35,601 nt of DNA from Gammaproteobacteria bacterium (lineage in GTDB: Bacteria; Pseudomonadota; Gammaproteobacteria; JACCXJ01). Position 1 is the stretch's first letter, and every line of letters begins with the position of its first letter. The position numbers were made by a program, and so were the translations under genes. The notes beneath the pieces are model-generated. The model ran no database searches, was not told the origin of the DNA, and saw only the letters and a program-made list of their open reading frames with translations. Location: the NCBI GenBank assembly GCA_013697045.1, contig JACCXJ010000154.1, positions 1 to 35,601 on the forward strand, written 5' to 3'. Positions 19,963-24,965 of the stretch are shown here, one piece after another.

Positions 19963-20865
19963 ATGAGGTTCCGCTCGGTATCTGAACGCATCGTATCTTT
20001 GGGCCCTTCCGTGGCCGGCCCGCTGCTCGTCTCTGCTTTCGCATTGGCACAAGGTACCATTGATGCGGCTGGTGCAGAAGGTCCTGTGGAAGGCCCGCGC
20101 ACGGCCCTCAAGGTGTGCGCCGACCCTCACGACCTGCCGAGCTCCGACGAGGGGCTCCAGGGCTATGAGAACAAGATCGCGCAGATGTTCGCCGACGATC
20201 TCAAGCTCCCCATCGAGTACACCTGGTTTCCGCAGCGCATGGGCTTCATCCGCAATACCTTGCGCAGCACCGAAACCGCCGGTGGCGGCTTCAAGTGCGA
20301 TATCGTCATGAGCGTCCCGGCCAACTTCGAGCTGGCGGCGACCACCAAGCCCTATTACCGCTCTTCGTGGGTGATGGTATACGTGAAAGGCCGCGGCCTG
20401 GATGATGTCCGATCGGCACAAGCCCTCGCCGGTCTACTACCGGAACGCAAGAAAGCGCTGCGCATCGGGCTCTTCGACCGCAGCCCGGCCGCGCTGTGGG
20501 TGGCGCACCACGGCCTCATGGAACAGGCCGTCCCCTACCCGATAATGTCCGGCGACCCGCGCGCCTATCCCGGCGAGATCATCGAGAAGGACCTCGTCGG
20601 CGACACGATCAATGTGACCTTCGTCTGGGGGCCGATCGCGGGTTACTACGCCAAACGGGTCAAGGGGCACGAGGCCAAGGGGCACGAATTAGCCGTGATC
20701 CCGATGCCGTCCGAACCGGGGATCCGGTTCGATTTCGCCATCGCCATGGCGGTGCGCCATGGCGAGAAGGCCTGGAAGGACCAGGTCCAGGGGCTCATCG
20801 ACAAGCACCGTGCGGACATCCGCGCGATCCTGCTCGACTATGGCGTGCCGCTGCTAGAGGACTGA
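19963..20865 (+). CDS. XoxJ/MxaJ-like periplasmic protein associated with quinoprotein dehydrogenases
   Basis: The 300 residues have a signal peptide (VAGPLLVSAFALA then AAGA) and then LKVCADPHDLPSSDEGLQGY, ENKIAQMFADDLKLPIEYTW, FPQRMGFIRNTL and KCDIVMSVPANFE. These are hallmarks of the solute-binding-like proteins encoded with methanol and other PQQ alcohol dehydrogenases (XoxJ, MxaJ). They are thought to help activate the dehydrogenase in the periplasm instead of serving an ABC importer. No xoxF or cytochrome gene lies in the window, which is unusual. A MITE-like element starts at its stop codon. Confidence 0.9.
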   Translation: MRFRSVSERIVSLGPSVAGPLLVSAFALAQGTIDAAGAEGPVEGPRTALKVCADPHDLPSSDEGLQGYENKIAQMFADDLKLPIEYTWFPQRMGFIRNTLRSTETAGGGFKCDIVMSVPANFELAATTKPYYRSSWVMVYVKGRGLDDVRSAQALAGLLPERKKALRIGLFDRSPAALWVAHHGLMEQAVPYPIMSGDPRAYPGEIIEKDLVGDTINVTFVWGPIAGYYAKRVKGHEAKGHELAVIPMPSEPGIRFDFAIAMAVRHGEKAWKDQVQGLIDKHRADIRAILLDYGVPLLED

Positions 20866-21123
20866 GAGTTTGGGCAAAAACCGTCGCGAGCGAAGGGATG
20901 TCGCGTTGCATCCTCGGCGCGCCAAGCAGGGCCATTCCCTGGCCCTGGCTTTCCGCCGGAGCGCAGGACCGTTTCGCCAGGAGCGAAACGGAGCGCAAGC
21001 GCCGAAGGGGCGAGTCCCAAGGACGGGACGAGCAACCCGAGTGTATGTTGAAATACATGAGGATTCCGAGCACCGCCGGAATGCGAGATCCCGAGCGCAG
21101 TAGGTTTTTTCACAAACTCTGAG
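20862..21123 (+). mobile_element. MITE-like element, copy 1 (262 bp)
   Basis: The ends are imperfect inverted repeats: CTGAGAGTTTGGGCAAAAAC at the left, and the complement of CTCAGAGTTTGTGAAAAAAC at the right. The right ~80 bp and the left ~43 bp match the reverse complement of the element at 24815-24965. This copy has about 110 bp more in the middle. It begins exactly at the preceding stop codon and has no transposase, so it would be a non-autonomous element. The antisense ORF 20795-21073 is an artefact of it. Confidence 0.75.
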
Positions 21124-21128
21124 GCCGG

Positions 21129-21824
21129 ATGCCGGCGCCGAGCTCGTGGCTGCGCCGCGCCGCCTTCAGGCGGGTGTTTCTGCGCGCGCTGCTGGGCCTG
21201 GCCGCCCTCGTTGGGATGACGGCCACGCACGCGGGGGCGCCGGGTGCGGCCAACCCGGACGATGACCAACGGCAGCTCTCCAAGGCCGAGACCCTGCTGT
21301 GGCAGACCGACCACCTGGCCAATGTCCGCCGCCCGAGCAGGCTCCGCTATCGCTATACCAAGACCGGGACGGCGGAGGAGCAGCACACCGACGTCATCGA
21401 TCTGGAGGTGCTGCGCGTCCACCCCGACGGCCAGAAGGGCGTCCAGGTCCACTATTTCACCGGGAAGCAGGAGAAGCCCGTCCCCGAGCAGGACCCGGTC
21501 ACCGGCAACCCGGTCCTCGCGGTGTACCTGCAGGCCGAGGTCTACGCGATGAACCGGCGCACCGAAGGGGGCTGGCGCTACTTCCACCGAGCGATCAAGA
21601 CGGCGCAGCTCGGGGCACGCCGCGGCATACGCGGCGTCGCGACCACCGTTTCGAGACCGGCCGCCCCATACCGCAGCGCACCCACCAGGGGCGCTACGAT
21701 GATGGGCATTCGCCGAGACAGGGACGGGCGACCTTTCAGGACATTGCCGGGTATGATCCGCGTCATGCGGGAGCGGTGGGCGAAAGACGATGGCGGGGGA
21801 GGGGAGGGGGAGGGGTGGCCCCGT
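21129..21824 (+). pseudogene. Exported hypothetical protein lacking its own stop, running into the next gene
   Basis: The first 160 codons of ORF 21129-22652 encode a separate protein: a signal peptide (FLRALLGLAALVGMTATHAG), then LSKAETLLWQTDHLANVRRP, LRYRYTKTGTAEEQHTDVID and LQAEVYAMNRRTEGGWRYFH. This looks like a real periplasmic domain. From about codon 160 the sequence becomes arginine-rich and unconvincing until the cytidylyltransferase begins at 21825 in the same frame. The gene has probably lost its 3' end, or an indel has shifted it, and the fusion is incidental. Family not recognised. Confidence 0.55.
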
Positions 21825-22652
21825 ATGAGCAGGGCTGAATCACTCGTCGTCGTGCAGGCACGGCTGGCCTCGACGCGCCTGCCGGGCAAGGTCTTGATGG
21901 ACCTCGCCGGCGAGCCGCTCATCGTTCGCATGGTCGAGCGCGTGGCGGGCATGAAGACCCCGGTGCGGATCGTGGTGGCTACGACGACCGATCCCGCCGA
22001 CGATGGGCTAGTCTCGGTGTGCCGGGCGGCAGGGATCGAGGTCTTTCGCGGGCACCCGACCGATCTCCTCGACCGTCACCTGGCGGTGGCGCGCCGCTAC
22101 GGTGCGGAGGTGGTCGCCAAGGTGCCGTCCGACTGCCCGCTCGTCGATCCGGCGGTCATCGACGCGGTCTTCGCACGCTTCGCGGAAGGAGACAGCGATT
22201 ACACGAGCAACCTGCACCCCGCCTCTTTCCCGGATGGCAACGACGCCGAGGTCATGTCGGTCGAGGTCTTGGAATACGCCTGGCGCGAGGCCCGGTTGGA
22301 TTTCGAGCGCGAGCACACGACGCCGTTCCTCTGGGAGCAGCCCGGTCGTTTCCGATTGAGTAACGTCGCGTGGGAGGCGCGAGCCGATGGCCGCCCCGGC
22401 AGGGACTATTCGATGTCGCACCGCTGGACCATCGATTATCCCGAGGACTATGAATTCATCCGGCGGGTGTACGAGGCCCTGTATCCCGCCGATCCCGCTT
22501 TCGGGCTCTACGACGTCCTGGACCTCTTGGACCGCCGGCCGGGGCTTGCGGCGATCAATGCGAAGTACGCCGGCGTCAACTGGTCTCGCCATCACCTGCA
22601 TCGGCTCCGCACCATCGATCCGGGAGCGACCCGCGCCGTCGGATCCCTATGA
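21825..22652 (+). CDS. SpsF-like cytidylyltransferase
   Basis: The family start is MSRAESLVVVQARLASTRLP at 21825, inside the longer track ORF, giving 275 residues. The N-terminal R-x-x-S-T-R-L-P-G-K nucleotide loop, PSDCPLVDPAVIDAVF (metal-binding acids) and the later YSMSHRWTIDYPEDYEFIRR are those of the SpsF/NeuA/KdsB superfamily. These transfer CMP from CTP to keto-sugar acids. SpsF homologues commonly pair with SpsE/NeuB synthases, and one is encoded 4.8 kb downstream. The stop overlaps the next start (ATGA), so the operon begins here or just upstream. Confidence 0.88.
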   Translation: MSRAESLVVVQARLASTRLPGKVLMDLAGEPLIVRMVERVAGMKTPVRIVVATTTDPADDGLVSVCRAAGIEVFRGHPTDLLDRHLAVARRYGAEVVAKVPSDCPLVDPAVIDAVFARFAEGDSDYTSNLHPASFPDGNDAEVMSVEVLEYAWREARLDFEREHTTPFLWEQPGRFRLSNVAWEARADGRPGRDYSMSHRWTIDYPEDYEFIRRVYEALYPADPAFGLYDVLDLLDRRPGLAAINAKYAGVNWSRHHLHRLRTIDPGATRAVGSL

Positions 22653-23506
22653 TGCCCGAGGACGATAAACACCTCGAAGCGCTCGCCCATCGCGTGCGCG
22701 GCCATATCGTTCGCATGGCGACCCGCGGGGGTTGTTTCATCGGGGCCTCGCTGTCGTGCGTGGATCTCTTGACGTATCTCTATGCCCGCTGGCTCCGATT
22801 CGATCCGGCGCGGCTAGAGGACCCCGAGCGCGATTACCTCTTGCTCTCGAAGGGACACGATGTCCCCGCGTTGTATGGGCTATTCGCCGAGCTTGCGGTC
22901 CTCGATCCCGCACGCCTCGAACGGCACCTTGCGCCCGACGACGACATCTACTGGCACCCGAACCGTAATATTCCGGGCGTAGAGTTCCATTCCGGCTCGC
23001 TCGGCCACCTGCTTTCGGTGGGCCTCGGCATCGCGCTCGACGTGAAGCTACGCGGCGGCCCGAACCGCGTGGTGGTAGTCCTCGGCGACGGGGAGCTGAA
23101 CGAGGGATCGGTGTGGGAGGGGGCCCTGGTCGCGGCCGCCAAGGGTATGGACAACCTCGTGGCCATCGTGGACCGCAACGGCTTTCAGGCCAACGTCGCG
23201 ACCGAGGACCTGATCCCGCTCGAGCCGCTCGAAGAGAAGTTCCATGCCTTCGGCTGGGCGGCATTGCGCATGGACGGCCACGACTTCGATTCCATCGAAC
23301 GCGGCCTGGCGCGCATCCCGATCGATGCGGGCCGGCCGAGCGCCGTCATCGCGGACACCGTGCGCGGCAAGGGCCTGCCGAGCTTGACGGCCCGGGCCGA
23401 CCGCTGGTTCTGCAACTTCACCTCCGGGGAGGTCGAGATGCTTTTGGAGGAACTGGATGGGACCCGTCAGGCCGTGCTCGCGAGCGAGACCATCGTCGCG
23501 AGGTAG
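22649..23506 (+). CDS. Transketolase, N-terminal (TPP-binding) subunit
   Basis: The 285 residues correspond to the N-terminal half of transketolase. They include the phosphate-contacting SKGHDVPALYG, the HPNRNIPGVEFHSGSLGHLL stretch, and the TPP motif GDGELNEGSVWEGALVAAAK ending in NLVAIVDRN. GKGLPS lies near the C-terminus. It needs the C-terminal subunit encoded at 23910. Split transketolases are common in archaea and in sugar or secondary-metabolite clusters. It should transfer two-carbon units between a ketose and an aldose; the substrate here is unknown. It overlaps the cytidylyltransferase gene by four bases. Confidence 0.93.
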   Translation: MMPEDDKHLEALAHRVRGHIVRMATRGGCFIGASLSCVDLLTYLYARWLRFDPARLEDPERDYLLLSKGHDVPALYGLFAELAVLDPARLERHLAPDDDIYWHPNRNIPGVEFHSGSLGHLLSVGLGIALDVKLRGGPNRVVVVLGDGELNEGSVWEGALVAAAKGMDNLVAIVDRNGFQANVATEDLIPLEPLEEKFHAFGWAALRMDGHDFDSIERGLARIPIDAGRPSAVIADTVRGKGLPSLTARADRWFCNFTSGEVEMLLEELDGTRQAVLASETIVAR

Positions 23507-23516
23507 GGGCGGGACG

Positions 23517-23834
23517 ATGAAATCCATATCATCTCCTTCCGAAAAGCGACCAGACGTGAAACGGAAATCCTCTTCCGAAACCTCCAAGACGGATTGGGCT
23601 CGCCTGAAGACGATGAAAGACGAGGATATTGATCTCACCCCAGACCATCCCGAGGCGGATATCGATCATATCCGCAACGGTATCGTGCGGCATGGACTGA
23701 GGCCCGCGCCCGGCAAGACGTCCGTATCTCTGCGAATCGACACCGATGTATTGGAGTGGTTCAAGTCTCAAGGCCCCGGTTATCAAGTCAAGATCAACGC
23801 GGTCTTGAAGGCATTCAGGGACGCGTCGGTCTGA
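23517..23834 (+). CDS. BrnA-like antitoxin without an adjacent BrnT
   Basis: I start at ATG 23517 behind GGGGCGGGACG, giving 105 residues; the track ORF begins inside the transketolase gene. The N-terminus is a charged linker (TDWARLKTMKDEDIDL). The C-terminus SVSLRIDTDVLEWFKSQGPG then YQVKINAVLKAF is the ribbon-helix-helix DNA-binding domain of the BrnA family. BrnA normally follows brnT and autorepresses. Here it lies between the two transketolase halves, 10 bp after one and 75 bp before the other, and no BrnT-like ORF is adjacent. Confidence 0.85.
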   Translation: MKSISSPSEKRPDVKRKSSSETSKTDWARLKTMKDEDIDLTPDHPEADIDHIRNGIVRHGLRPAPGKTSVSLRIDTDVLEWFKSQGPGYQVKINAVLKAFRDASV

Positions 23835-23909
23835 CCGGGAATAGGCAGAGATCACCGCGCACCGGCCTGGCCTCATGCGTAACGCGGACGGCAAGCGGGA
23901 GACCTAAGA

Positions 23910-24818
23910 TTGCAGAGTTACGAAGACGCCCTCTATCGTCTCGCCGAAGAGGACGATCGCCTCGTCGTCATGACGGCCGAGAACCGGGCCGCGATCCGGA
24001 CGCTGCCCGAGCGCTTGGGGCCGCGCTTCATCGATGTCGGGATCGCCGAGCAAACCATGGTCGGAATGGCGGCGGGACTGGCGCTGCGCGGCCGTATCCC
24101 GGTCATCCACGCGCTCGCGACCTTTCTCACGCTCAGGGCCTTCGAGTTCATCCGCACCGATGTCGGGATCCCGGGCCTGCCCGTCAAGCTCGTGGGGAGC
24201 TTCCCGGGCTTCGTCTCGGAGGCCAACGGCCCGACCCATCAAGCCATCGAGGACGTGGGGCTCATGCGCGGCATCCCCAGCATGAAGGTCTTCTGCCCCG
24301 CGGACCTCGATGATTTGCTGATCGGGCTCGATACGGTGCTCCGCGACCCTGCACCGTATTACATCCGCTATAACGCCCAGAGCCCCGTGGTCACCCACAG
24401 CCCCGACTTCGTCTCCGGCCGTGCCGAGGTGCTGGCCGAGGGCCGGGACGCGACGTTCTTGACCTATGGCGTGCTGTTCTCGGAATGTTATAAGGCGGCC
24501 GAGCGCTTGCGGAAAAACGGCCTGTCGGTCGGGCTCGTGAACCTCCGGACCTTGAAGCCGGTGGACCGGGATCTCCTCGTCGCCCTGGCCCGTTCCTGCC
24601 GGCTTCTGGTGGTCGTCGAGGACCACTTCAAGACCGGCGGCCTGTATTCCATCCTGGCCGAGACCCTGCTCGATGCGAGGGTCACGGCCGAGACCCTGTG
24701 CCTGTCGCTCCCCGACCGCTGGTTCAAACCGGCGCTCTACCCGGCGCTCCTGGAGCACGAGGGCTACACGCCGGAGGCCCTGGCGCGCAAGGTCCTGGCC
24801 CGGCTAGAACGTCTCTGA
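23910..24818 (+). CDS. Transketolase, C-terminal subunit
   Basis: The gene starts at TTG with GGGAGACC upstream; no ATG fits. The 302 residues contain the pyrimidine-binding domain (MTAENRAAIRTLPERLGPRF, DVGIAEQTMVGMAAGLAL with the catalytic Glu, FLTLRAFEFIRTDVG) and the C-terminal domain (GLVNLRTLKPVDRDLLVALA, LLVVVEDHFKTGGL). It pairs with the N-terminal subunit to form the TPP active site. The MITE-like element begins four bases before its stop codon, so the last codons read into the element's inverted repeat. Confidence 0.93.
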   Translation: MQSYEDALYRLAEEDDRLVVMTAENRAAIRTLPERLGPRFIDVGIAEQTMVGMAAGLALRGRIPVIHALATFLTLRAFEFIRTDVGIPGLPVKLVGSFPGFVSEANGPTHQAIEDVGLMRGIPSMKVFCPADLDDLLIGLDTVLRDPAPYYIRYNAQSPVVTHSPDFVSGRAEVLAEGRDATFLTYGVLFSECYKAAERLRKNGLSVGLVNLRTLKPVDRDLLVALARSCRLLVVVEDHFKTGGLYSILAETLLDARVTAETLCLSLPDRWFKPALYPALLEHEGYTPEALARKVLARLERL

Positions 24819-24965
24819 GAGCTTGTGAAAAAATCTACTGCGCTCGGGATCTCGCCTTCCGGCGGTGCTCGGAATCCTCATGCATTTCAATATACACTCC
24901 GGTTCCTGCGCTCCGGCGGAAGGCGACCTCCCTTCGCTCGCGACGATTTTTTCACAAGCTATGAG
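24815..24965 (-). mobile_element. MITE-like element, copy 2 (151 bp)
   Basis: Left end CTGAGAGCTTGTGAAAAAAT and right end, read as complement, CTCATAGCTTGTGAAAAAAT form the inverted repeats. It matches copy 1 (20862-21123) in opposite orientation, with shared blocks TCGTCGCGAGCGAAGGGA, TTCCGCCGGAGCGCAGGA and about 80 bp at the other end. It sits tightly between the transketolase stop and the aminotransferase ribosome site. The long ORF 24865-27147 starts inside it and is not a real protein start. Confidence 0.78.

What the first reader, a model, noticed from the sequence alone, without database searches (positions are those of the whole stretch)
20862..24965. Two inverted copies of a MITE-like element flanking the cytidylyltransferase-transketolase block
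Elements at 20862-21123 and 24815-24965 share ends of about 20 bp (CTnAnAGnTTGTGAAAAAA) and inner blocks, in opposite orientation. Each begins exactly at a stop codon. Recombination between them could invert the 3.7-kb segment, or the elements could act as RNA hairpins between genes.
Basis: seen in the sequence. Interest (0 to 1): 0.6.

Follow-up and report, generated by a model that had tools for sequence, protein, structure and literature searches.

The report
Mobile hairpin element, conserved across phyla
The two matching pieces are copies of a small transposon-like hairpin, present in dozens of copies in this genome and often inserted exactly into gene stop codons; its folded core recurs in unrelated bacteria (Proteobacteria and green sulfur bacteria), each lineage with its own end sequences.

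Summary
Both elements (20866-21119 and 24819-24961, opposite orientation) are copies of one high-copy MITE: canonical length 143 bp, ends GAGnTTGTGAAAAAA, a TGA/TCA target duplication inside CTSAG. The genome has about 175 matches to the end sequence against 13 for the reversed control, and a related genome lacks the copy at 24819-24961. The element folds as one long hairpin.

Inversion of the block is not supported. Both copies keep TGA/TGA duplications, which an inversion would turn into TGA/TCA, and the relative has the same gene order without the element. Insertion into the upstream stop codon is a family property (22 of 37 copies; expected 28%).

The unexpected part: the inner ~110 bp recurs in Gamma- and Betaproteobacteria and Chlorobiota, in elements of nearly constant size, while the ends differ by lineage (mean identity 0.38 at the ends, 0.79 in the core). 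35 of 45 base pairs show compensatory changes. Rfam's Xanthomonas "sRNA" sX9 is one arm of this element.

No autonomous parent with the same ends was found. The family is a MITE by every other test made; why its folded core is conserved is inferred, not shown. I found no description of the cross-phylum family in the open-access library searched.

The parts
20863..20865 (+). Left target duplication TGA of copy 1; also the stop codon of the upstream ORF 19963-20865
   Evidence: sequence, ORF list, family-wide target analysis
20866..21119 (+). Copy 1, long form (254 bp) with extra internal hairpins; left end GAGTTTGGGCAAAAA (two mismatches to the consensus), right end CAAACTC
   Evidence: covariance model R1 match at 20980-21120, 44.2 bits
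21120..21122 (+). Right target duplication TGA of copy 1
24816..24818 (+). Left target duplication TGA of copy 2; also the stop codon of the transketolase C-terminal subunit gene 23910-24818
24819..24961 (-). Copy 2, canonical 143-bp element; hairpin -76.2 kcal/mol on the core strand (z -9.7)
   Evidence: R1 match 138.4 bits
24962..24964 (+). Right target duplication TGA of copy 2; the adjoining terminal base of the element is A in place of C
24867..24906 (-). Conserved apical part of the core (GGAACCGGAGTGTA..TGCATGAGGATTCCGAGC); overlaps the sub-threshold sX9 match at 24880-24928
21826..24818 (+). Gene block between the copies (cytidylyltransferase, transketolase N, BrnA-like antitoxin, transketolase C); context only, not part of the element
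   Evidence: Pfam; gene order shared with G001

Best explanation
The two elements are copies of a non-autonomous miniature transposon (MITE). A DDE transposase acting in trans on the ends GAGnTTGTGAAAAAA pastes it into CTSAG and duplicates the 3-bp TSA; this enzyme step is inferred. TGA is both a target and a stop codon, so most insertions fall exactly into stop codons and rebuild the stop, leaving the upstream gene intact (shown for 22 of 37 copies). Each copy becomes a 143-bp hairpin directly after a gene, in these two cases on a transcript that probably continues into the next gene (inferred). The inner hairpin belongs to a family of ~140-bp mobile hairpins spread over Gamma- and Betaproteobacteria and Chlorobiota. 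Its core and fold are kept by selection while the terminal repeats differ by lineage, as if one structured core had been adapted repeatedly to the transposase present in each host. The adaptation step and the purpose of the core (RNA stability, protein binding, or a DNA role in transposition) are inferred.
For: Copy number. Of 37 complete copies, 32 have both flanks; 19 of these have identical 3-bp duplications, nearly all TGA or TCA, with C just outside in 53 of 64. Empty site in G001 between the same two genes. The TSD is the stop of an ORF of at least 100 codons in 22 of 37 copies, against 12 of 43 allowed CTSAG sites, p = 6e-5. Hairpin folding. In other taxa 62 of 82 core matches lie centrally in a 122-202 bp (mostly 138-151 bp) element with lineage-specific ends. 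Alignment A1: 94.5% of cells paired against 71% shuffled and at most 41% when slid; 35 of 45 pairs with two-sided changes. Model R1 matches 82 of 276 gammaproteobacterial genomes at E <= 1e-4, and 20 mid-scoring matches that were read show the same architecture. Identity between lineages 0.38 at the ends, 0.79 in the core.
Against: No autonomous element with the same ends was found in this genome's loci, in complete X. phaseoli, in C. ferrooxidans, or in complete G111, so the transposase is inferred. The only lead is a decayed transposase remnant with PF13751 beside a GAGGTTGTGAATC end flanked by TGA. Stop-codon preference may reflect selection against insertions in genes as well as target choice. 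Covariation alone does not separate an RNA role from a DNA role. The gene calls behind the 28% expectation are rough.
Confidence: 0.85

Rival explanations
1. Invertible switch: recombination between the two inverted copies flips the 3.7-kb gene block.
For: The copies are in inverted orientation with 91% identity over 93 nt. Elsewhere in the genome 5 of 32 elements have TCA on one side and TGA on the other, the signature expected of inversion-type recombination between copies.
Against: Here both copies are TGA/TGA, whereas one inversion would give TGA/TCA and TCA/TGA. G001 carries the block's genes in the same order and orientation without the element. An inversion would break a run of co-directional genes. 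No recombinase was seen next to the copies.
Confidence: 0.04
2. A conserved functional RNA (sX9-like small RNA or 3'-UTR hairpin) is the primary unit, kept for a host function; mobility is secondary.
For: Strong covariation across phyla. Conserved unpaired internal loops that a purely arm-templated correction process would erase. The core strand folds better than its complement (-59.3 against -51.2) and has 42 G-U against 22 A-C cells. sX9 was described as an sRNA in Xanthomonas, and sX9 genes were reported as up-regulated under copper (PMC10924375).
Against: Copies vary in position, have TSDs, and are absent at an orthologous site. Orientation relative to the upstream gene is 12:10. Copy numbers of tens per genome fit a selfish element. 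sX9 lies on the strand opposite to the better-folding one.
Confidence: 0.2
3. REP-type palindromes mobilised by RAYT tyrosine transposases.
For: Hairpin, many intergenic copies near gene ends, CGTC/GTAG-like letters near the base of the hairpin.
Against: Length 143 bp in place of 20-40 bp, true terminal inverted repeats, 3-bp TSDs; REPs as described in PMC3733652 are 20-40 bp with an end tag.
Confidence: 0.03
4. Deletion derivatives of one insertion sequence that spread recently between phyla by horizontal transfer.
For: A near-identical 34-bp core in distant taxa.
Against: Ends, arms and TSD type differ by lineage while the fold is kept. Recent transfer would carry the ends along.
Confidence: 0.12

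Closest known systems
Rfam RF02228, sX9 (Xanthomonas sRNA)
   Same: Its 76-nt model matches one arm of the same element in Xanthomonas (93.9 and 84.5 bits) and Herbaspirillum (57.4 bits).
   Different: sX9 models only half of the hairpin, on the complementary strand, and is filed as a small RNA gene, not as part of a mobile element. The window copy scores 21.3 bits against a gathering score of 44.
ERIC/IRU and YPAL elements of enterobacteria
   Same: Short imperfect palindromes that fold as RNA and lie between genes; ERIC affects mRNA stability (PMC2229807).
   Different: Different sequence (no match in 5,426 E. coli genomes); ERIC sits at TA, YPAL has TSDs of 3-26 bp; both are reported from enterobacteria.
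QMITE1/2 of Coxiella burnetii
   Same: MITEs that give rise to small RNAs (PMC5896051, PMC10969869).
   Different: No sequence comparison was made here; core-bearing elements in Coxiellaceae MAGs (L164) may or may not be related.
IS5/IS1031-type or IS1182-type insertion sequences (candidate mobilisers)
   Same: A TNA target duplication and ends that begin with GAG are, from my own knowledge, typical of the IS1031 group. A decayed transposase remnant with PF13751 in this genome has a similar end next to TGA.
   Different: No intact element with the same ends was found; assignment to an IS family is untested.
GTAG/CGTC-tagged REPs
   Same: Palindromic, high copy, near gene 3' ends (PMC3733652).
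   Different: 20-40 bp with a tetranucleotide end tag; many are RAYT-associated; no terminal repeats of this kind.

Membership tests
MITE | Short (<500 bp), no coding capacity | tested here: met
   143 bp canonical, 254 bp long form; no ORF of its own
MITE | Terminal inverted repeats | tested here: met
   GAGnTTGTGAAAAAA-like ends at both sides in 37 complete copies
MITE | Target-site duplication | tested here: met
   Identical 3-bp TSD in 19 of 32 copies, all TGA or TCA
MITE | Many dispersed copies and empty sites in relatives | tested here: met
   175 end matches; empty site in G001
MITE | Mobilised in trans by a transposase of a related autonomous element | tested here: inconclusive
   No parent with the same ends found; one decayed remnant as a lead
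Rfam sX9 (RF02228) | Score above the gathering threshold of 44 bits | tested here: not met
   Window copy 21.3 bits; Xanthomonas relatives of the element are above threshold
IS1031/IS5-type element | TNA target duplication | tested here: met
   TGA/TCA in this genome; TTA/TAA in several Xanthomonas copies; other lineages appear to have 4-bp TSDs
IS1031/IS5-type element | IS5-family transposase between matching ends | tested here: not met
   None among the transposase loci examined
REP (RAYT) | 20-40 bp palindrome with a GTAG or CGTC end tag | tested here: not met
   143 bp with TIR and TSD; definition from PMC3733652
ERIC | Sequence homology to the enterobacterial repeat | tested here: not met
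   No match in E. coli genomes, distant mode
Invertible DNA segment | Evidence of both orientations or a recombinase | tested here: not met
   TSD pattern and synteny with G001; reads not available

The most novel reading that the evidence does not exclude
A cross-phylum family of mobile structured hairpins in which the folded core, not the ends, is the inherited unit: the core persists over long evolutionary distances and repeatedly adopts the terminal repeats of whichever transposase is available, inserting preferentially into stop codons so that insertion is nearly neutral. Rfam sX9 would be a fragment of it.
Probability: 0.4. Interest if true: 0.8.

Novelty: new variant of a known kind. 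Interest (0 to 1): 0.62.

Why it matters
MITEs are usually thought of as short-lived, lineage-bound debris of one insertion sequence. This family keeps one folded core from Chlorobiota to Xanthomonas while its ends differ in each lineage, which asks what selects the core and how ends are exchanged. It also suggests that sX9, listed among the most abundant bacterial sRNA families in one survey (PMC9029176), counts copies of a transposable element. The exact use of stop codons is a simple, testable way for an element to insert between genes without harm.

Tried and rejected
Inversion of the gene block: rejected on TSD pattern and synteny. Parent insertion sequence: PF05598, PF01609 and PF13751 loci in the genome, end-pattern pairs 0.6-3.5 kb apart in held loci, and end patterns in X. 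phaseoli, C. ferrooxidans and G111 gave no intact element; the 679-bp pair in G111 is nested MITEs. Apparent ends next to transposases in C74 were chance matches on inspection. Rfam found only sX9. Paper searches for the core sequence as text, for sX9, and for MITEs at stop codons found no description of this family; the library holds open-access papers only, so the original sX9 paper was not read. Strand-specific RNA selection: only weak (42 G-U against 22 A-C). Only 11 candidates per genome were scored, so copy numbers in other genomes are capped.

Full report
OBSERVATION. The two elements are real. The short one is 24819-24961 (143 bp) and the long one 20866-21119 (254 bp); each is flanked by TGA on both sides. 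The left TGA is in both cases the stop codon of the upstream gene. BLAST with the long copy gives 82 matches in the genome and with the short copy 48, although only 40 candidates were scored. The end motif occurs 175 times against 13 for its reversed control.

ANATOMY. From the fetched loci I extracted 37 copies with both ends. Most are 143 bp, with ends GAGnTTGTGAAAAAA. 32 had enough flank on both sides: 19 have identical 3-bp duplications, TGA or TCA; the base outside is C in 53 of 64 ends, so the target is CTSAG. A close relative (G001, same family, many copies at about 90-95% identity) has the transketolase-aminotransferase junction without the element, an empty site. Both strands of the short copy fold into one long hairpin with z-scores of -8.6 and -9.7, and the long copy into a branched one.

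STOP CODONS. In 22 of 37 copies the duplicated triplet is the stop codon of an open frame of at least 100 codons. With rough gene calls over 247 kb of this genome, 12 of 43 CTSAG sites that do not disrupt a gene are stop codons (28%); the observed 59% has p = 6e-5. In other lineages 18 of 62 elements sit at a stop codon of a long frame, against 0.8% for random positions. Target preference and selection against gene disruption both may contribute. Orientation relative to the gene is 12:10.

INVERSION. The duplications at both window copies are TGA/TGA. An inversion of the block would convert them to TGA/TCA and TCA/TGA. G001 carries cytidylyltransferase, transketolase N, transketolase C and aminotransferase in the same order and orientation. 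The block is therefore most simply in its original orientation. Elsewhere in the genome 5 of 32 copies do have TCA/TGA mismatched duplications, so recombination between copies may have occurred at other places (inference).

A WIDER FAMILY. Among the 82 matches in the 80 listed loci, 62 lie in the middle of an element, mostly 138-151 bp, with its own inverted ends, which are lineage-specific. In the 40-sequence alignment A1 the ends are 38% identical between lineages, while the core is 79% identical. The structure explains 94.5% of cells against 71% after shuffling and at most 41% after sliding; 35 of 45 pairs have changes on both sides. Inner arms covary as strongly as the ends, for example G-C 17, U-A 14, A-U 5, C-G 4 at one pair with no exception. 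Conserved unpaired blocks (in GTAGCGAGC, CGCGCAGTAG and the GCGCAG/CGAGC internal loops) persist, so a simple arm-to-arm correction process is not enough to explain the pattern (inference). A covariance model found 82 of 276 gammaproteobacterial genomes at E <= 1e-4. I read 20 mid-scoring matches and all have inverted ends and the same layout, with further variants of the tip; that second alignment was fitted to the model and leans towards it.

RELATION TO KNOWN FAMILIES. Rfam names one relative: sX9, a 76-nt Xanthomonas sRNA family, which is one arm of the element on the complementary strand. The window copy itself is below the sX9 threshold. A survey lists sX9 among the most abundant bacterial sRNAs (PMC9029176), and an expression study reports several sX9 genes as up-regulated (PMC10924375). 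Neither passage that I read mentions mobility. Searches of the open-access library for the core as text and for related terms found no description of the family. Paywalled work was not searchable, so novelty is provisional.

MOBILISER. No autonomous element with the same ends turned up in the loci of this genome, in complete X. phaseoli, where end pairs are at MITE spacing only, in C. ferrooxidans, or in complete G111, where a 679-bp pair proved to be nested MITEs. Transposase families PF05598, PF01609 and PF13751 gave one lead: a decayed remnant on C202 with an end GAGGTTGTGAATC next to TGA. It is weak.

JUDGEMENT. That this is a MITE is secure apart from the missing transposase. That its core belongs to a cross-phylum family with lineage-specific ends is well supported. 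What the core does is open: an RNA hairpin after the stop codon that affects mRNA decay, or a DNA structure that helps transposition. The slight excess of G-U over A-C cells (42 against 22) leans to RNA of the core strand, but weakly.

Noticed in passing
window 23517-23834: A BrnA-like antitoxin gene (PF14384) sits between the two transketolase subunit genes; G001 has only about 50 bp there, and no partner toxin was looked for.
   Followed up: partly
window 21129-22652: The cytidylyltransferase domain is fused in frame to about 200 residues with a signal-peptide-like start and no Pfam match; possibly a truncated neighbour gene joined by rearrangement.
   Followed up: no
G000 loci L005, L019, L024, L050 and one other: Five of 32 elements have TCA on one side and TGA on the other, as expected if copies recombined with inversion or exchange of flanks.
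   Followed up: no
L092 2032-2069 (G000:C295): A 38-bp element made of the two terminal repeats only, with a TGA duplication; a solo-end derivative.
   Followed up: no
L161, L112 and window 20980-21120: The long form replaces the arm next to the tip by a CCCAAGGAtGGGG-type hairpin; the same replacement is seen in another gammaproteobacterial MAG, so the subtype is also shared across lineages.
   Followed up: no
G053:C1:1330236-1330354 (L104): A core match appears to lie inside a protein-coding gene rather than between genes (impression from the sequence, not checked).
   Followed up: no
L283 1501-2180 (G111): MITEs nested inside a MITE of this family, including a different element with ends GGGCCTGTTAACACTATCCCAATGGG.
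   Followed up: no
L110 (Klebsiella aerogenes LR134132.1), between dnaN and recF: A stretch 78% identical to the core lies in this intergenic region of a record labelled as plasmid.
   Followed up: no
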